From Escallonia rubra (taxonomy: Eukaryota > Streptophyta > Magnoliopsida > Escalloniales > Escalloniaceae): a stretch of DNA of 64,000 nt. Each line of letters begins with the position of its first letter. Positions within the stretch are counted from its first letter, which is position 1. The DNA is taken from positions 62,001-126,000 of the forward strand of contig JAVXUO010000323.1 in the NCBI GenBank assembly GCA_033065855.1. The letters are read 5' to 3'. The notes beneath the pieces are model-generated. The model had not been told where the DNA came from. It made no database searches and worked only from the letters and a program-made list of their open reading frames with translations. Shown piece after piece: positions 1,119-52,804 of the stretch. Position numbers and translations under genes: made by a program.

Positions 1119-4100
1119 TTAGTAAGCTGGAAACATAGGACCTGTCCCGCCTTCCTTGTCCGCATCAGGAATGCTGGAGTAGCAGTAAAGATTATTGGAC
1201 ATCTCCCAACTCCAGTCCAGCTTCCTTGACACAGACATACGAGGCCACCGGTTAATCCTCACATAGTGCGCCCTAATCTTTCCATCTGCCAAGAAGCTGG
1301 TAACAACGGAATAACAGGCCTCGTGACCACCCCACACCTTGTCACCGGGATCTGCAGTTTGGCTCCCATCCGGATGGAAGTAACGGCGCATCGGACGTCC
1401 CGTGCCCCTCCAGTAGGGATCAAGATTACGCCAATACTCAGGAGCCCGCTGCAGTAAGAGAATATTTTGTCACAGTGCACGCAAACAATGGATATAAATA
1501 GACTGCAGACATGGAATATATCCAGCTGTGATTATCATTATCTCAAAATATAGTGGACAAAGTTCCAAAAAAAAGGTCGCTTTATGTATAATAATACACT
1601 AAAACGGCCTAATTTGCTCCTACCATTTTTCTTTGAGGTTAATACCGAAACCGTCCCTCGATACCTCAAATACCATCAAGTGTGTCAAACTCAGTACACT
1701 GTTCAACATAGTCCACTTAATTAAATGTGCTCTGATGCCCATCAGAAACATGAGGTATTACTATGAAACAGTCAAAAAATTTGATACTGAAGTCGCACCA
1801 CGATAGAACTTGAGGTGAAGTCGTGAAATTTATCCCGTTCTCTCTTTCTCTTAGTGTTTTTGTTCTTTTACATTTTTTGTGTCGTCATGATGCATAATAA
1901 TGTATTAATTGTACCAAACAGGGGGTTAACAGCTCGTAGGCGAGCAGAAAATCAAGATTGTGCATATTCCAAAATTTTAGGCACCTCTTTTTCTCTTTTT
2001 TTTTTTTTTTTTTTTGGGTGACAAGTATTCCAAAAGAGTTGGCAAAGCTGGGAAGAAGGCAGATACCTGGTTAAAATGAAAATCCCAACCATGGTCCCAC
2101 AGATCTTCCTTCATGATGCGGGTCTAACATCAAGAAGTTAAGGTTAGGAGGAAGTTCACATGAGCATAAAATGATGAATGTGAGGAGAGAGTGAAATAGA
2201 GTCACTCACGCGCTTGCCGTCCATAGCGGACAATGAGTAAGCGGCCAACTTTGACAGTCCCCGGACTTGTGACAAGCGAGGTATGTGTGCTTTCCCAAGC
2301 CATAATTCCTCGCACTACAAAAAAAGGACACAATCTCTAATCTCAATCTCGTTTGAAGAAAAGAGCGACAAATAGACTCTGTCATCAATTAACAAAATAC
2401 TGCCATGGGAACCCCACTTTTCAACAGGTAAACGTAAAAGAGGCATCTCTTGGAGTAACATTATGTTAGCACAAGCAGTAACAAACTGTTTGATTTAAAT
2501 AAATGCAACTTATAACATTTACCAGTCTTAAGGAAGTTATCCCTGTCAATAAGGGATAGATCTGTGGCTTTTCTACCCTGTTCATTGCCCAAGAAACCCA
2601 AGATGACTGTTTAACACAAATCTCTAAAACATTGGATCTTTGCTAGTGCCTTTTATTGAACTTGAATTGAGCTAAAATTGCAAAAGACTCATGGATCTAT
2701 AAACCAATGAAAGCATGCTGGTCAAGCTTTTAAAAGAAGTTTGAATCACCAAAAACTCTCCTCTCCCCTCATACTCTGCTTCCAGAAAGTCAAGAAACTA
2801 CAAGTATGATTTAGAATCTTTCTTATCCTCGATACCTGATGTATTAAAGCCCTATCAATCATCCCTCAGACTATAGGGCCCTGACTGGACCCAAGTCTCA
2901 ATAATAGTTTTCAAATGTTCCGGAAACCCAAATATCTGTTATTTGCCAAAAGAAGCAAAAACAACAGCAGGATGCTCTTTAAAAAGGTTTTAACTTCTCT
3001 CCAACATTAATAAATTCAAGCTAGCACATTAGACTGCAAAACACACGAGAGGGTACTACTGATGAACGTGACAAAACCATCTTATTCATACAAAGGATGC
3101 CTTTCTACCTTCAAGCGTTCTTTTATAAAGCTAAAGCCAAATGCCGCACCAAAATCTAACATGGAGCTAGTGAATCATATCTGAGAAATGAATACTCTGA
3201 AACATTCAGGAAGGAGGAAGCTGTTCTTGGCAGTTGGCACACTATTAATCTCGCTTGTGTGCTCCTCCTGCATGGGTTGAATGAGAAGACGTACCTGTAA
3301 AACCCTAGCACAGAAGCTGCACAAAAATGGGTATCATGAAAAAACTACTAACTCGACATTTCCACCCCTTTCCCTCCCAACTATGGAGAGACAGTCCTGA
3401 GACGTAAGTGGGCATAAACTTTTCCCTTTTTGCTTCCTTTCTTCCCATTTAGAAACTCTAAAACTCCACTACTTTCCGTCTTCTAATCCTTCCTCGCCTT
3501 TCTAAAATCTTAGACGATTTGAAACTATTGAACATAAATCCCTTGATATGATCTTGCGTGTACATCCCTGCTTAATCTCGAATGTTATCAGTTCGGATAC
3601 CTAGACCAGATAATACTGTACATGGCTTAAGGACTACAATAACAGCAACAGAAACAAAAGACATCCTATACTTCCCACGGTTATAACTTCCTCTTTTCCT
3701 CTTTTTACCCCCTATTTGCGCAGAACCAAGATGCAAGCCAATCAACGGATGTTCATTGCACTTTCGAATATATTCAATCCACAAGATACCACCTGCAGCT
3801 CCTCCCCCCACAGAACCACAGGAGAAAAGTCACTACTCAATTATTAATCCTGCTAAAAGAAGCTACAACACAGCGCAAATTGTTTAAGGAGAATGAACAC
3901 GATGTATAATTACTCAAAGTGCGCGGGGATAAGGTATAGAATATGTCAAGCACAGAGTAACCCTTGCAGTAGCATAAATGAAGATTCTTGAAGGCTTCTC
4001 TAAAAAGCCAGTCAGCTTAAATTTTTTTTAACTCTTTTACCCACCATTATTGCTTTTGTTCTTCCAAAATATCTGCATCATTCAATTTGTTTTCAACAGC

Positions 4101-47100: not shown

Positions 47101-50100
47101 ATTTTGTGGTTGACATATTTCGGCTATTAGGGCTGTATCAGGGCCAAACAGAAAGGGATCAGTTTCTTATTTTGGGAACGTAGTTTTAGTAGAGTTTTGT
47201 TAAGCTAACAGGTTATGAATGTGGTAAGTACCGAGTTTAGTAGAGCTTTATCCGCTAGTTGTACCTTTGTCCTTGACCTGCAAACATGAAGCTTTATTGG
47301 TCTACAAATAGTCAATATCTTGCAAGGGTGCTACATCATGTCTCTTACCGTTCAGTATAATGTGCTCATCCTTAGAAATGTGTCAAATCATTCTCTCATA
47401 AAAATTCATCCTCATATTTCTTCATGTGAAATGCTTCATGCGGCATTTGCATTGCTTGTAGTTGACTGTAAGGTGCCGGTCTTCATTATATCTTTTCTTC
47501 ATTCTGAAGCTTTTGTTCTGTTCTGCAGCTGTTTTGACTACACAAATGCATTGGCGGTGAGCTTTCTCTTCTTTGTGGAGACATGTAATTTCTAGAGGAT
47601 GTATAATAGGCCTTTGTTATACTGAGACGTTTGAAAATATTGTTATGCCCATGAAATTTATGGTTTTTGTGTCATTTGAAGCAATTCGGAACTGTTCTAT
47701 TGCAAATTGGTTGACTTTTTGGTGTTAGTAGTCAGGTGACTGAGGTGTTCTAGATTCTTCGTAGTTGGTTCTCATCTCAAAAGTTATTAAGCTCTACAAA
47801 CTTATGACACCGTAGAGAAGGTAATAGAAGTGAACTTATAAAAAATCTCAATACTGAATTTTTGGTTGGTCCAAAGAGGAGAGGGCAATGGAAAGCTGGA
47901 GTTACCGAAGGAGATCAGGGATGTTTTTTGGGCCAAACAAAACACATAATATTCGAATGAGTAACATGCATTGTTTGGTGTGCCCTATCCTGTTTCCTGT
48001 TCTTTTTCCTTTGTTCTCCACTCCTCTTCTTTAACAAACTAAGGGAAGATGATCAGCCTACTTTCCTTCTTTAGTCCCAAAGTTGAATCTTCTATGTTTT
48101 GCATGAACAAACAGAACAAGGGTACTAAGTCATCATCTGTAGTTCAATATGTAATCTTCTTCCTTTTCTTGTTATGTTTTTCCTTTTTTTCTCGGTTTGT
48201 TTCAGAGGTTTCACCTTATCTTTTGTGTTTGTTTCCATATGTAGTTTTAGTGCTTCTATAGACCCCTAGAACAATCTTGTATATGTCAAAGCCTTAGCAT
48301 TGACTCATCCTAAGGAGGGATCTGAATATGAACAACAAGCTTGTATCTATACCAGTTTGGCACAGATGTCCTAAGTACTCTTGTTCTTTTTCCAGGATTT
48401 GGTGGTGGGATACATGGGTGTTCCGAAGTATGCTGGAATCAGCATGCCACAACATCCACAATATGTTACCGTCAGGTTAATTAGCCTCGATTCAAATCAT
48501 ATTTGGAATTGCGCTTGACTACCTCTACCTTTCATACATTGATCTTTGTTTAGATGGAGAAATAAATTAGCACTTTGACATTTTTATCCAAACACAGAAA
48601 TGAACGTGGAAGAGAAATGTTGAGCCTGGTGAAGGACCTTCTCGAGATTACTCCTACAACGAGTGGAGTAAAACCCAGTTCTATTCTATGCACACACTAA
48701 ATATCTTGTGTTTTAAGCTCTCTTGCTTACAAAATGAGTTTTTTTTTTGGTTTTCAGGGTGACCGGCGACCATTTGTCATGGAAACCGTCAAGGCAGATG
48801 ATAATGCTAAGTTCGGTATGTAGTGGTATCTTCTTTATGACAATTGACCTGGCAAAGGGGTATCCTGACCCGCGGGTCTACCTGACCCTTAAAAAACCCC
48901 GGTATTGGCATAAAAAACCAAGACCCGTAAAATTTTTACCCAGCCAGACCGGCCCGTAAATTCTAGTTTGGTCAGGGACTCAGGGCCAGATACGAGTTAA
49001 CCGGGTTACCCGGTTATCTATGGTATACATGTCACTTGGTTTATGTTTTAGGGTTTCTCATCTTTTAGGGTATACCCAAACACATTTTCACTCTTATCTC
49101 CTCTCACTCTGCCTGCTGCCGCCTCTCTCTCTCTATCTCTTAACCTCACTCATTTGTTTCTCATGTCACTTCTCTGTCGCCACCCCCACCCGCCGCCCCT
49201 CTCTCTTCTCCTAGGCACGCATTCACACTCCACTCCAGGACTCCATAGACCACGGTCCTCGCCGCCATCATGACCACATATATCACCGCCGACACGACCA
49301 CAGATCTTACTACCTACTCAGTCACGGCTCCTCGCCGCCGACACGGTTGCGACACAATCGTAGGTCCTCGGCGTCCTCACTTACAGACGTAGCTCCTCGC
49401 CGCCGCCTTCCTTTTCCACTGTCCGCCGTTGCTTCTCTCCTCAGACAACGAACCACAGTCCACACGAACACGATGCAAGGAGATCTTCATTCTTCTCACC
49501 TCGCGCTCACAAATCCACCGAGTCCACACTCACTGATCAGATCTGCCATATGTAATTTGAAACGCTTACCCGTGAGTCTAACCGGGTATGGAAAAGGGTT
49601 ACTTGAAAAAAACTGGGTAATTCTTACCTGGACCCATTTTGCCCGTACCTGTCCGGGTGTTACCGCCTGACAAGCTAACCCATTTGCCAAGTCTAATACC
49701 AATGAATTCTTTGTGGATCTTCTAGATCTTTGGGATTCTATAGATTTTGTCGATTCTGTAATTGGCCCATATGTAGATGCAATCACATGTGCATATGTGT
49801 AGATGTAACAACTTGGGCTACGACCCATCTGCAAGGCAGTGCTTCTCTCAAAAGGGCTAGCCAAGTAGGTACTTGTTATGTTATCATTTACTCTTGAAGC
49901 TTAAACTATTAGAGAATGAGTTCTTAATTGTACGTGTGGATAAAAATAAATGAGAAATAAATCAAGGTGCACCACCACCTAATTGCACAATAAACGGAGT
50001 GCAAATTCAATTGTTAAAGAGAGGGACTAAATGCAGAGGGAAGGTCGAACCCAAGACCTTGCGCAACAAGTGCTCTGATACCATGTTAAGTTATCATTTG

Positions 50101-51007
50101 CTCTAAAAGCTTAAGTTGTTAGATTATGGGGAAAAGTATTATCTTGCTTAATCATTCTCATCAGTTCATGGCACGGTCTTATAAGGTTAATCGCAAATAT
50201 CTCACATCCAATATGAGATATTATATTCTTCCCGCCTTATGCCTCATCGTCCCCCTAAAGCCCATTCTTAACCTTAACCAAACATTGCCCAAAATCTTCC
50301 TCTCTAACCATTGTTGGATAATACTACTAACCCAATCGGATCAGCCCGATTAGAGTATGCCTATGTGTCCCAACCTGCAGTAACCCGACTCGATAGCCTA
50401 GGCTTAGCTTTCGAAAGTCGCACTGATACCATACGTAATGACCCAGTCCACAGTCCCATTACATGGCAATACCTCAATCAAAAGTGCTAGCCAAATAGAT
50501 ACTTATGATTTTAGGGTTAATTACTCACGGGCTTTTCTTTAGTATCTTGTGTTTGTGTCACAAATAAGTTTGTTGCCGTTTTATCGCAGGGAGAGGCCCT
50601 CCTCAGCCGGCCCCAAAGTTTGTTGGGAACTTGATAGCATTCATTTTGAACCTAGTAAGACTTGCTCTTAGTTTTGCTTATCGTGGTAAGTGTTTACAAT
50701 AACTTCTTTAAAGACCTTGCATTTTACTTGGTTATTTTGGTTCAGATTGGCCCAAAGGGACTAGAATTTGCCCGTTATTCACTGGATTACCACACAATCA
50801 GGAATTATCTATATGTAAATCGCACATGGGGAAAAGAAAGGTATGCATGAAGAAGTGTTTATCCTTACAATGGTCCTGCAGGTTTCCTAACACATTTGAA
50901 ACTTTGATGAATACAGAGCTGATAGGCACATGCCATCATATGCAAAGAAGATTGTGTCTGCATACAATCAGAATGGTGAAATAGATCAGATGCTTTCCAA
51001 CAAGTGA
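29116..51007 (+). CDS. HCAR: 7-hydroxymethyl chlorophyll a reductase, 19 exons, 458 codons
   Basis: Chloroplast enzyme that reduces 7-hydroxymethyl chlorophyll a to chlorophyll a with ferredoxin, the last step from chlorophyll b to a; the family uses FAD and iron-sulfur clusters. Exons: 29116-29182, 29311-29419, 29552-29636, 31983-32094, 33383-33467, 33581-33622, 33721-33799, 36779-36830, 36925-36987, 37943-38040, 45773-45808, 45892-45953, 47529-47556, 48396-48475, 48598-48667, 48758-48815, 50590-50654, 50746-50840, 50917-51007. All phases agree and the frame ends LSNK-TGA. Residues 1-30 resemble a transit peptide. [17 protein letters not shown] gives a CxxCGxC cluster site at 58-64. Further conserved cysteines lie in FCGVGCQVQ (202-210), GTNCVDNG and [14 protein letters not shown] (292-305). 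The FrhB-type C-terminal half ends [19 protein letters not shown]. Length matches the family. Introns 3, 4, 7, 10 and 16 are swollen by transposons, yet no exon is disrupted. Confidence 0.96.
29738..30865 (+). mobile_element. Young 5'-truncated L1 LINE in HCAR intron 3
   Basis: Flanked by a 17-bp target duplication GAAAATCATAATAATGT (29721-29737; one mismatch at 30866-30882). It keeps an uninterrupted frame to 30711 of more than 320 codons, the C-terminal end of L1 ORF2: [17 protein letters not shown], then a zf-RVT zinc-binding region ([33 protein letters not shown]) and [13 protein letters not shown] 3' UTR of about 155 bp and a short A-rich tail follow. Reverse transcriptase and endonuclease are absent (5' truncation), so it cannot move itself. 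The intact frame and near-identical duplications point to a recent insertion. Confidence 0.88.
30883..31982 (+). other. Rest of HCAR intron 3
   Basis: AT-rich intron DNA after the LINE. No further element or coding similarity was recognised. Confidence 0.5.
32240..33050 (+). mobile_element. Decayed L1 LINE fragment in HCAR intron 4
   Basis: Interrupted frames give a reverse-transcriptase catalytic block ([15 protein letters not shown], then [13 protein letters not shown]) followed about 400 bp later by [20 protein letters not shown], the usual order in plant L1 ORF2. Several stops and frame changes show it is old. Ends are approximate. Confidence 0.72.
34319..35320 (-). mobile_element. Fossil TRIM-like short LTR element in HCAR intron 7
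   Basis: Two short direct repeats of about 72 bp (about 34319-34391 and 35250-35320; core AAAAGCTTAAG) act as LTRs. Beside the right copy is CTGATACCA, which read on the minus strand gives the initiator-Met tRNA primer-binding motif TGGTATCAG. Beside the left copy is CTCCCCCTC, a polypurine tract on the minus strand. There is no coding capacity. Without the nested insert it would be about 330 bp, typical of terminal-repeat retrotransposons in miniature. A related copy is at 49874-50154. Confidence 0.65.
34544..35207. mobile_element. DNA transposon (MULE-like, non-autonomous) nested in the TRIM
   Basis: Inverted ends (GAAGCACCGGTGCGG at the left; GAAGCACGGATTCCGGTGCGG read inward from the right) are flanked by the 12-bp repeat GAATCAAACCTA (34532-34543 and 35208-35219). 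The duplication is longer than the usual 9 bp of MULEs, so the superfamily is tentative. The interior has a GAAGAAGAAGG microsatellite (about 34686-34760) and GC-rich DNA without a recognisable protein. Confidence 0.6.
35687..36347. mobile_element. hAT-type element, TAGACCTGGCAAA family, copy 2
   Basis: Ends TAGACTTGGCAAAC (left) and TAGACCTGGCAAAG (right, read inward) are flanked by GGGAGTAG and GGGTGTAG, an 8-bp duplication with one mismatch. Subterminal ACCCGCGGGT motifs match copy 1. The interior includes a CA-rich tract (about 35870-36000). Non-coding. Lies in HCAR intron 7. Confidence 0.78.
37740..37877. mobile_element. 138-bp MITE in HCAR intron 9
   Basis: Terminal inverted repeats of about 45 bp begin GGGAAATGCTATTTCCAC (left) and GGAAAGGCTATTTCCAC (right, read inward). 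The flanks TAAGCTTTT and TAAACATTT are only partly alike, so the duplication is uncertain. It ends 65 bp before exon 10. Confidence 0.6.
38640..39115 (+). mobile_element. Decayed L1 LINE 3' fragment in HCAR intron 10
   Basis: Split frames show zf-RVT traits ([34 protein letters not shown]) and the terminal motif [12 protein letters not shown], in the order of L1 ORF2. Several stops and frame shifts are present. Confidence 0.65.
39449..40930 (+). mobile_element. Fossil copia gag fragment, interrupted
   Basis: Two gag parts lie in order on the plus strand: an N-terminal part near 39449-39780 ([40 protein letters not shown]) and a middle part near 40690-40890 ([37 protein letters not shown]). 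About 0.9 kb of unrelated DNA separates them. The relic is broken. It lies in the opposite orientation to the copia pol remnant downstream, so they belong to different insertions. Confidence 0.7.
41390..44245 (-). mobile_element. Fossil Ty1/copia pol remnant with 3' LTR
   Basis: On the minus strand, in order: integrase core end and C-terminal region (about 44229-43613), reverse transcriptase (about 43220-42300) and RNase H (about 42250-41680), as in copia elements. A polypurine tract (minus-strand CTTGAGGGGGAGTG) ends at 41642, and the TGTCGATT sequence beyond it should be the LTR; its far end near 41390 is approximate. No gag or 5' LTR was seen. It carries many breaks and is inactive. An 18-nt run of C lies near 43700. 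Within HCAR intron 10. Confidence 0.8.
44573..44632. repeat. CT/CCCT-rich simple repeat
   Basis: Tracts of (CT)n and (CCCT)n run together here within HCAR intron 10. Confidence 0.85.
45954..47528 (+). other. HCAR intron 12
   Basis: A 1.6 kb intron between exons 12 and 13. No transposon or coding similarity was recognised. Confidence 0.5.
48845..49695. mobile_element. hAT-type element, TAGACCTGGCAAA family, copy 3
   Basis: Ends TGACCTGGCAAAGG (left) and TAGACTTGGCAAATGGG (right, read inward) have the GGGTA/ACCCG-rich subterminal pattern of copies 1 and 2. The flanks ATGACAAT and ATACCAAT are an imperfect 8-bp duplication (6 of 8). The CT- and CGCCGCC-rich interior gives spurious open frames. 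It begins 29 bp after HCAR exon 16. Confidence 0.7.
49874..50154 (-). mobile_element. Fossil TRIM-like element, copy 2, in HCAR intron 16
   Basis: Short LTR-like direct repeats (about 49874-49932 and 50084-50154) enclose about 150 bp that includes TCAAGGTGCACCACCACC, shared with the TRIM at 34319-35320. CTCTGATACCA beside the right copy is the tRNA-Met primer-binding motif on the minus strand. Non-coding; no clear target duplication. Confidence 0.62.
50155..50545. repeat. Mixed LTR-like and MULE-end debris
   Basis: CACTGATACCATACGTAATG near 50420-50445 resembles an LTR end plus primer-binding site of another retroelement. GCTAGCCAARTAGRTACTT occurs both here (about 50490) and at 49857, bracketing the TRIM. 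GGGTTAATTACTCACGG at about 50514 is a lone end of the MULE family seen at 16178-17429. Confidence 0.4.
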
Positions 51008-51136
51008 TTGTGTTAGATGGGAAGTTTGGGTGACTCGTGATTCCATGTATGTGCCATTTTGATCTACGTCCTTTCCTACTTGGCCAAAAACTATGTGTTT
51101 TGTAATTCTACTAAAAGACAGGTCTTGTAGTGTTAA
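51008..51136 (+). other. Probable HCAR 3' UTR
   Basis: This AT-rich stretch lies between the HCAR stop codon and the target duplication of the next Pack-MULE. No coding signal. No unambiguous polyadenylation motif was picked. Confidence 0.45.
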
Positions 51137-51398
51137 TATTTTTTAGAGTTAAAGACAAAACTGTCCTTTGAGGTTTACAGGTATTTGCACTTTGCTCCCA
51201 TGTTTACAACTTTTGCAATAGTGTCCCCTGAGGTTGACAAAACCATTGCAAACAGCTCCAAAAGTGGATGGCCGTTCAATTTCGGGCGTTAAGTCCGCAT
51301 GTGCGGTGCACATGCCATTTTGGCATGGACAAATTTGTCATTTTCCTACCCCCATCTTCCCATTCTCACTCTGGTCATCATCTTCTTCTTCTTCTTCT

Positions 51399-51542
51399 GA
51401 TGTAGCTGGTCTCTAAGGGTTTGATGTAGACGCCATCCATTCCAACAACAGTGAGAGAATGATTGGCCACCGCAAGAAACATTTTTTCGTTCAATATGGT
51501 GTTAATGACACGGAGAAGATAGGCCTTGCCATAGTCCACCAC
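51399..51542 (-). pseudogene. Captured fragment: laccase (multicopper oxidase)
   Basis: The minus-strand frame reads YGKAYLLRVINTILNEKMF, then LAVANHSLTVVGMDGVY and IKPLETSYI. This is the plant laccase pattern between the first two cupredoxin domains (GK-Y-LRVIN, ANH-LTVV, YVKPF-T). It then passes into an unrelated arginine-rich run encoded by a TTC repeat. Only 48 codons are recognisable, and no copper-binding HxH motif is included. Confidence 0.75.
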
Positions 51543-52139
51543 AGCTTTGAATGTCCCTGCAACCATGGATTGAGATACAAATCTGGTAATTATAAGGCTG
51601 GTAACCGCTTTTTTCAAGAGAAACGTGGGCAAGAAATTGCGGCTCTCACAACCTTGGGGCGAATACAGTCTTAAGCACTGAAATACATCAAGTTCAGCAT
51701 CTGTACCAACCTGGTTTGGAACATGGATAGAGGTCTCCTGGTTGGCCATTAATGGTGAATGCATCTGATTGATTGGGCTCACCTCCGGTTGCCAGGGCAT
51801 CCTGAATTATCTCCATCACATCTCCCTTATTCCAAGACGCTTATAATCCAAGAATGCAGTAACAATCAGTCAGAAAAAAGTTTCAAATTAATCATAAGAA
51901 TGGAGCTGGGTCGAAATTTAATCAAAAAAGTTTTAAATTTAATCAAAAAAGTTTCGAAGTTCCAACATTTCATTCTGTTAATCAATCAAGGCCCATGAAT
52001 TCGTCCAATTCAAGTTACAAACCATCTGGGTTTCGCAATACGAGAGAAATGAGCGGTGGGTTTGGGTTCAAGTCGCCGGCAGTTGGGTCGAAAGTTACTA
52101 AAATCCTGTAGTACATTGAAAGATTCCTGTGGGCATCAC

Positions 52140-52215
52140 CTGATCTTCCTTGCAATTTCTCTGCAATCAGGTTCCAATTCTGGGGGCCATGAAGGGTAAC
52201 AAGTTCCTCAAGGTT
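52140..52215 (-). pseudogene. Captured fragment: R2R3-MYB, end of R2 repeat exon
   Basis: The minus-strand frame reads NLEELVTLHGPQNWNLIAEK then LQGRSG. This matches the R2 repeat of the MYB52/54/56/105/117 group, as I recall it. Similarity ends at GRSG followed by GTGATG, consistent with the conserved MYB exon-intron border, so genomic DNA was captured. Confidence 0.78.
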
Positions 52216-52397
52216 GATCCATAAGGATTTACTTGTTCTTTGTACTACGATGCTTATGTGAAAGTGCCTTTTTATGTTTTTGGGTTTTTATGATGTGCGT
52301 GTTGAAGATTTACTTACATATATTGTTTTTGAGGTCTTGGAAGATCTTAATGGGAAGTTTTCCTGTAATAGGGGTTGGATCTCTATTTTTTGCACTT

Positions 52398-52523
52398 GCG
52401 GAGGATGAAATAATTGTTGAGGACGATGAATATGATGATCTCTACAATGATGTTAACCTTGGAGAGGGTTTCCTGGAGCTGCAGAGGTCTGAAGCACCAT
52501 CTCTTGGTGTGGGCAATGGGGGA
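52398..52523 (+). pseudogene. Captured fragment: acidic N-terminus of an RRM-type RNA-binding protein
   Basis: The frame AEDEIIVEDDEYDDLYNDVN then LGEGFL resembles the DEYDDLYNDVNVGEGFL motif of plant RRM proteins related to the cleavage-factor CFIm/CPSF6 group (recalled, unverified). No RRM domain is included. Confidence 0.6.
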
Positions 52524-52804
52524 CGCAAGAGAGGGAGAGAGAGAAGAAGAACATGAAAAAGATGAACAGAGTGAGAAAGGGAAGACGGGGGTAGGGAAAT
52601 GATAAATTTGCCCATGCCAAAATGGCATGTGCACCGCACATGCGGACTTAACGCCTGAAATTGAACGGCCATCCACTTTTGGAGCTGTTTGCAATGGTTT
52701 TGTCAACCTCGTGGGACACTATTGCAAAAGTTGTAAACACGGGGAGCAAAGTGCAAATACGTATAAACCTCAGGGGACAGTTTTGTCATTAACCCTATTT
52801 TTTA

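What the first reader, a model, noticed from the sequence alone, without database searches (positions are those of the whole stretch)
51146..52795. Three-gene Pack-MULE (laccase, R2R3-MYB, RRM-type protein) abutting the HCAR 3' end
Long TIRs, an exact 9-bp duplication and fragments of three unrelated genes in mixed strands show repeated capture. The laccase and MYB parts face HCAR, so a transcript from the element could run antisense to the HCAR 3' end. The element could also supply its polyadenylation site.
Basis: partly seen in the sequence, partly recalled or inferred. Interest (0 to 1): 0.72.

Follow-up and report, generated by a model that had tools for sequence, protein, structure and literature searches.

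The report
Four-gene Pack-MULE downstream of HCAR
A 1.65-kb plant jumping-DNA element beside a chlorophyll-breakdown gene carries scraps of four unrelated host genes, and its relatives suggest that such scraps were added in steps and swapped between elements; the kind is known, the assembly record is unusually readable.

Summary
Window 51146-52795 is a 1650-bp element with ~253-bp terminal inverted repeats (TIRs, 92%) and an exact 9-bp duplication. Donor loci lie in the same 566-Mb genome: laccase (98%), R2R3-MYB (95%), RRM-protein gene (90-91%). The TIRs flank 20 other scored elements; 11 of 21, window included, have 9/9 duplications.

Relatives show stages. C3144 has all four fragments; C2287 lacks laccase; the C1904 group has only RRM beside the TIR. 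Filler between laccase and TPR copies the TPR-MYB junction (17 nt exact), so laccase was probably added last, by template-switching repair. The left TIR and TPR piece of C2287 group with another Pack-MULE subfamily, evidence for cargo exchange.

It is a non-autonomous Pack-MULE: a new member of a known kind. Effects on HCAR (stop codon 138 bp upstream) are untested; a motif scan gives no support for a poly(A) site at its left end.

The parts
51005..51007 (+). HCAR stop codon, 138 bp before the element
   Evidence: last 83 aa of HCAR match PDB 5dqr, E 1.4e-43; position
51137..51145 (.). left copy of the 9-bp target site duplication, TATTTTTTA
   Evidence: null
51146..51398 (+). left terminal inverted repeat
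   Evidence: in TIR trees with the window's right TIR, C3144, C2287 right and C1904 (that part unresolved)
51398..51891 (-). laccase fragment (two exon parts and the sequence between them), from the C2261 / C1041 laccase genes
   Evidence: 97.8% to C2261, 95.7-96.8% to four C1041 copies; Pfam 1.3e-12; PDB 1.8e-13
51892..51952 (.). filler between laccase and TPR pieces: 17 nt identical to the TPR-MYB junction of C3144, and a perfect 21-bp x2 tandem duplication at 51914-51954
51957..52092 (+).
   Evidence: 92.6% to C2520; ORF and TPR domain of the host gene; same fragment in other TIR elements
52100..52207 (-). R2R3-MYB fragment (end of an exon and start of the following intron), host locus C2628
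   Evidence: 95.4%; Pfam 9.2e-6; host gene Myb repeats
52228..52389 (+). non-coding part upstream of the RRM-protein ORF, host locus C3206
   Evidence: 91.4% over 162 bp
52387..52523 (+). N-terminal coding part of the RRM-protein gene (before the RRM domain), joined to the former part by an internal deletion (826 bp apart in the donor)
   Evidence: 89.5% over 143 columns; deletion junction shared with C3144
52542..52795 (-). right terminal inverted repeat
52796..52804 (.). right copy of the 9-bp target site duplication, TATTTTTTA

Best explanation
The interval is a non-autonomous Mutator-like element (Pack-MULE) that transposed as a unit into the 3' flank of HCAR, making a 9-bp duplication (structure shown; the transposition itself inferred from TIR and TSD). 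Between its TIRs it carries four host-gene fragments in alternating orientation: laccase (-), TPR-protein (+), R2R3-MYB (-), RRM-protein (+) (shown). Inferred assembly: RRM next to the right TIR is oldest; the TPR-MYB-RRM block existed before laccase was added; laccase was copied from the C2261/C1041 laccase genes beside the left TIR by a repair event that switched templates, leaving filler copied from the TPR-MYB junction and a 21-bp tandem duplication. Some cargo was passed between Pack-MULE copies rather than freshly captured: C2287 combines a left TIR and TPR piece of one subfamily with the MYB, RRM and right TIR of another. Movement is presumably driven in trans by a MULE transposase elsewhere in the genome (inferred). 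At HCAR it is most likely a passenger without strong effect. My odds: Pack-MULE 0.97; laccase last 0.75; cargo exchange between elements 0.65; a measurable effect on HCAR 0.15.
For: TIRs and TSD. TIR family: of 21 elements scored (window included) 11 have 9/9 TSDs at BLAST-defined ends, 4 have 8/9, and C2287 has 9/9 with a 1-bp shift. Donors: laccase (longest perfect run 222 bp), MYB and RRM, TPR. Intron or other non-coding sequence in the laccase, MYB and RRM pieces, inferred from translations and alignments. Copies at different stages: C3144 with all four; C2287 without laccase and with more RRM-gene sequence; C1904, C3164 and C1905 with only RRM beside the TIR at the same junction. Filler shares 17 nt exactly with the C3144 TPR-MYB junction; the longest match of 300 simulated fillers to the two elements was 13; perfect 21-bp x2 duplication. 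C2287 left TIR groups with C752/C1136/C3195 at 100/99 and 100/98, and its TPR piece with C752/C1136a/C1136b at 93/84. MULE transposase domains are abundant in the genome.
Against: No element with both this TIR and a transposase was found: the one transposase region read (C1121, L070, 5.5 kb) has no such TIR, and the others were not read. C2287 may have lost laccase rather than never had it. Segments conflict: window, C2287 and the C1904 group share a 6-bp deletion in RRM that C3144 lacks, while window and C3144 share an RRM-gene deletion junction that C2287 lacks, so no single tree fits. The TPR tree rests on 73 bp for C2287 and its bootstrap had not settled; the window and C3144 TPR pieces are unresolved in it. 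Four of the 21 scored elements, C3144 among them (5/9), have no convincing TSD. The filler comparison with C3144 uses a relative, since the window's own TPR-MYB junction shares only 10 nt exactly.
Confidence: 0.9

Rival explanations
1. The four pieces were captured independently and directly from the host genes, in one or several events, with no exchange between Pack-MULEs; C2287 is a separate element or a deletion derivative.
For: Each piece has a host donor outside TIR elements. Laccase is carried only by the window and C3144 among the places listed, so it fits a single direct capture. The filler and 21-bp duplication also fit a multi-template repair event.
Against: C2287 shares the TPR-MYB and MYB-RRM junctions with the window, yet its left TIR and TPR piece group with another TPR-bearing subfamily. 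The filler copies the TPR-MYB junction, so laccase joined an element that already held both. TPR pieces in other elements share differences from the C2520 host gene with the window, which fits descent within elements, unless C2520 itself changed.
Confidence: 0.3
2. The cargo was gained by tandem insertion and re-mobilisation: two neighbouring elements used their outer TIRs and carried off the DNA between them (model for Pack-TYPE elements in PMC8903248, passages seen).
For: A product of two neighbouring elements could have unlike TIRs, as C2287 has.
Against: The laccase, MYB and RRM donor loci show no TIR of this family in the stretches held (for donors as queries; searches list no TIR match near them); fragments are 100-500 bp, orientation alternates, and the laccase junction carries templated filler, which this model does not predict.
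Confidence: 0.1
3. The element changes HCAR or laccase expression: it supplies a poly(A) site or antisense transcript for HCAR, or read-through RNA antisense to the laccase genes yields small RNAs against them.
For: It begins 138 bp after the HCAR stop codon. A plus-strand read-through would be antisense to laccase; 174 to 299 of 474 possible 21-mers are perfect in each of the five laccase copies. Captured gene pieces as siRNA sources are known from maize (PMC13317346, passage).
Against: No RNA data. No AATAAA-like site in the first 275 bp of the element; no unusual RNA fold in 51008-51300 (z 0.72).
Confidence: 0.15
4. The interval is a chimeric host gene under selection, using the 140-aa (-) or 88-aa (+) open frame.
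For: Open frames 51378-51800 (-), 140 aa, and 52290-52556 (+), 88 aa.
Against: The pieces run in alternating directions; synonymous and non-synonymous counts against donors (3 and 5, 1 and 3, 1 and 1, 4.8 and 9.2) show no constraint, though they are too few for a test; C3144 has a deletion of about 175 bp across the laccase/TPR junction.
Confidence: 0.03

Closest known systems
Pack-MULEs of rice and other plants (Jiang 2004, recalled and seen only as cited in PMC13317346)
   Same: Non-autonomous element with long TIRs, 9-bp TSD and fragments of host genes whose parents lie elsewhere; several loci in one element is known for Pack-TYPE elements (PMC8903248, passage).
   Different: Four donors in 1.65 kb with relatives at different stages, a templated junction filler, and a relative whose two TIRs belong to different subfamilies.
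[quoted passage not shown]
   Same: Family of Pack-MULEs sharing an acquired gene piece, with A/T-rich 9-bp TSDs; variant TIR arrangements among copies.
   Different: One acquired gene there, and changes by TIR duplication; here several genes and a TIR of another subfamily.
Maize Helitrons with stepwise capture (PMC3288121, passages)
   Same: Works alike: related elements with nested sets of gene fragments show sequential capture.
   Different: Helitrons are another class; this element has TIRs and a TSD.
Animal Pack-TIRs formed by gap filling or fork stalling and template switching (PMC8277862, passages)
   Same: Template switching as the likely mode of capture.
   Different: Plant MULE; four donors; stages preserved within one genome.

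Membership tests
Mutator-like element (MULE) | long terminal inverted repeats | tested here: met
   about 253 bp, 92%
Mutator-like element (MULE) | 9-11-bp target site duplication, different at each insertion | tested here: met
   window 9/9; across the family 11 of 21 9/9, 4 of 21 8/9, with different sequences; four without a convincing TSD
Mutator-like element (MULE) | mobilised by a MULE transposase that recognises these TIRs | tested here: inconclusive
   PF10551 is abundant (150 scored of 3309 candidates), but the one transposase region read lacks this TIR
Pack-MULE | host-gene fragments between the TIRs, with parental copies outside the element | tested here: met
   four donors, C2261/C1041, C2520, C2628, C3206
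Pack-MULE | no transposase gene inside | tested here: met
   1650 bp accounted for by TIRs, four host pieces and short joins; longest open frame from ATG 140 aa, overlapping laccase
Pack-MULE | element has moved as a unit (copies at other sites) | tested here: met
   C3144 has the same four pieces but no clear TSD; C2287 has three of them with a 9/9 TSD
Helitron | no TIR and no TSD, insertion between A and T | tested here: not met
   TIRs and 9-bp TSD present; the defining feature is recalled
CACTA / hAT elements | 3-bp or 8-bp TSD, short TIRs | tested here: not met
   9-bp TSD and 253-bp TIRs; the defining features are recalled

The most novel reading that the evidence does not exclude
Multi-gene Pack-MULEs in this genome are assembled largely by cargo exchange between existing Pack-MULEs (end replacement and template switching inside shared cargo or TIRs), with fresh capture from host genes as the rarer step, so that a cargo pool evolves reticulately; C2287 preserves a half-swapped product and the window element preserves the filler scar of the latest capture.
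Probability: 0.4. Interest if true: 0.55.

Novelty: new member of a known kind. Interest (0 to 1): 0.38.

Why it matters
The origin of Pack-MULEs is called perplexing in PMC8277862 (passages seen), with gap filling and fork-stalling/template-switching as models; another proposal is tandem insertion and re-mobilisation (PMC8903248, passages seen). This element has identifiable donors for all four pieces, relatives at different stages of assembly, and a junction filler that looks templated from inside the element itself, so the order and mode of capture become testable in one family. It also sits 138 bp from the HCAR stop codon, so any read-through transcript would carry sequence antisense to five laccase copies (up to 222 nt perfect), a concrete small-RNA prediction.

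Tried and rejected
Empty-site test inside the genome: the HCAR 3' end has only itself as a match, so no paralogue or second haplotype showed the pre-insertion site; by their descriptions the other collections are phages, plasmids, bacteria, archaea and metagenomes, and I did not search them. Autonomous partner: the PF10551 search scored 150 of 3309 candidates, but its loci could not be cut; one region read (L070) lacked this TIR; not resolved. Retro-copied (cDNA) origin: rejected because the laccase piece seems to retain intron sequence, the MYB piece runs into the intron after the exon, and the RRM-gene piece starts in non-coding DNA (inferred). Selection for protein function: small counts of synonymous and non-synonymous differences (laccase exon 3 and 5 against C2261; RRM 1 and 3; MYB 1 and 1; TPR 4.8 and 9.2) show no constraint but are too few for a test. 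The open frames of 140 aa (-) and 88 aa (+) are therefore not claimed as genes. Methylation signature: C>T/G>A makes up 16 of 28 private changes in C3144, 7 of 16 in the window, 11 of 17 in C2287; the relative-rate test gives p=0.016 for laccase alone but 0.07 over all segments; suggestive only. RNA fold of 51008-51300: z 0.72, nothing. Cargo of other family members: Pfam matched 0 of the 7 translated pieces sent; PDB matched a glycosyltransferase fragment in C1035 (6.2e-22) and nothing for the C396 piece that looked like XTH to me from memory. Papers: Ferguson 2013 and Juretic 2005 are not held.

Full report
What was checked. The window lies in a 566-Mb genome of 3222 contigs (window = C1125:62001-126000). 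The interval 51146-52795 is bounded by TIRs of about 253 bp, 92% alike, and flanked by TATTTTTTA on both sides. Its ends read GAGTTAAAGACAAAA and GGGTTAATGACAAAA; 28 of the 40 ends of the other 20 elements scored read GGGTTAATGACAAAA or GGGTTAATTACAAAA.

It belongs to a family. A DNA search with the element scored 40 of 1503 candidates of its first look and listed 108 matches, many of them TIRs. I scored 21 elements, window included, whose two ends were in hand. At BLAST-defined ends, 11 of 21 have a perfect 9-bp TSD and 4 of 21 have 8/9; C2287 has 9/9 after a 1-bp shift; C3049 has 8/8; C1855, C3144, C1136b and C1041e have no convincing TSD. Random 9-mer pairs match 9/9 in 3.5e-5 of draws. Of 14 further elements fetched, 4 carry the TPR fragment and none shows laccase, MYB or RRM sequence; one of the others, C1035, carries a glycosyltransferase fragment (PDB 6.2e-22).

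Cargo and donors. Laccase, 51398-51891, minus strand, two exon parts and the sequence between them (exon limits inferred from translation); five host copies, C2261 at 97.8% and four on contig C1041 at 95.7-96.8%; longest perfect run 222 bp. TPR-protein, 51957-52092, plus strand, coding DNA near the start of a long ORF at C2520, with TPR repeats further on (TPR_1 6.1e-9); that it resembles DnaJ/TPR proteins is recalled, not tested. MYB, 52100-52207, minus strand, the end of an exon and the start of the next intron of an R2R3-MYB at C2628. RRM-protein gene, 52228-52389 (non-coding part) and 52387-52523 (N-terminal acidic coding part) at C3206; the two parts are 826 bp apart in the donor.

The TPR fragment is a frequent cargo. 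One search listed 20 matches to 51860-52110: the window, one laccase tail, C3144, C2287, the host gene C2520, and 15 others. Of these 15, 12 have this TIR on both sides, 2 (C674, C1136a) on one side in the stretch held, and 1 (C1530) on neither in the 2.6 kb read. C2520 has none in the 3.1 kb of L053.

Stages of assembly. C1904, C3164 and C1905 keep 85 bp of RRM next to the TIR, at the same junction as the window; these three share flanks (C1904/C3164 97.9% and C1904/C1905 95.2% in long matches), so I count them as one insertion. C2287 has TPR-MYB-RRM, more RRM-gene sequence and no laccase. C3144 has all four pieces, with a deletion of about 175 bp over the laccase/TPR junction. Divergence from donors falls in the order RRM (9-10%), TPR (7%), MYB (5%), laccase (2%), which fits laccase being last, although rates differ between genes and the pieces are short.

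The laccase/TPR junction. None of the 19 other matches covers the 61 bp 51892-51952 (that search skips simple repeats and very common words, so this is no proof that they are unique). They hold AGCTGGGTCGAAATTTA, which is the TPR-MYB junction as preserved in C3144; the window's own junction shares 10 nt exactly, and 300 simulated fillers shared at most 13 nt with the two elements. Across 51914-51954 lies a perfect two-copy 21-bp repeat that resembles the laccase end (family D1). Templated filler of this kind is what repair synthesis with template switching leaves (established knowledge), and it suggests that TPR and MYB were already joined when laccase came in. C3144 has lost this stretch, so the filler cannot be checked there.

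Reticulation. In TIR trees the left TIR of C2287 lies in the clade of the TPR-bearing elements C752, C1136 and C3195 (100/99 with 34 rows; 100/98 with 46 rows), while its right TIR falls outside that clade, near the window, C3144 and C1904 TIRs (unresolved). By distance the right TIR is 8.1-9.0% from the window and C3144 TIRs, the left 11.5-15.0%. The TPR piece of C2287 sides with C752, C1136a and C1136b (93/84, 73 bp, bootstrap not settled). Yet the TPR-MYB junction of C2287 is that of the window. The simplest reading is recombination inside the TPR piece between two Pack-MULE subfamilies. The MYB piece hints at the same: C933, with other TIRs and MYB sequence spanning about 620 bp of the donor, shares 4 sites with all three copies against C2628 and one with C3144 alone, against 5 sites private to C933; these may be changes in C2628. 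The RRM segment groups window, C2287 and the C1904 group (6-bp deletion) against C3144, while the RRM-gene deletion junction groups window and C3144 against C2287.

Rates. Private changes since the donors: window 5 and C3144 16 in laccase (p=0.016), 16 and 28 over all segments (p=0.07). A quieter chromatin history of the window copy is possible but not shown.

Effect at HCAR. HCAR ends at 51005-51007 and the element begins 138 bp later. Nothing here shows transcription. The sequence gives one prediction: a plus-strand HCAR read-through would be antisense to the laccase genes; 174 to 299 of 474 possible 21-mers are perfect in each of the five.

Prior art seen. Rice has over 3000 Pack-MULEs from more than 1000 genes (PMC13317346, passages). 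Pack-TYPE elements with several loci are known (PMC8903248, passages). Stepwise capture is described for maize Helitrons (PMC3288121, passages including part of the abstract). Captured sequences as siRNA reservoirs are known in maize (PMC13317346, passage). My searches listed no paper whose title or shown abstract reports cargo exchange between Pack-MULEs; I saw passages of five papers only, and the library lacks most subscription papers, so this is no proof of novelty.

Noticed in passing
   Followed up: yes
L009 (C2287:187537-190940): A Pack-MULE whose two TIRs fall in different parts of the TIR tree, with a 9-bp TSD.
   Followed up: yes
L010 positions 2849-3055 (C2287:191232-191438): A further diverged TIR (77%) lies about 680 bp beyond the C2287 element, a possible second or nested element.
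   Followed up: no
window 48850-49700, HCAR intron: A stretch rich in ACCCGG/GGGTCA-type motifs whose ends look like TGGCAAA-type (hAT-like, recalled) termini; an inverted-repeat search of 48700-49800 found only two short palindrome-like pairs.
   Followed up: partly
G000, PF10551 matches: Many MULE transposase copies with near-identical scores and open frames of 777-783 aa, suggesting a recent burst; the one region read lacks this TIR.
   Followed up: partly
L035 (C933:825360-827337): A Pack-MULE with MYB sequence spanning about 620 bp of the same donor, split by about 0.8 kb of other DNA.
   Followed up: partly
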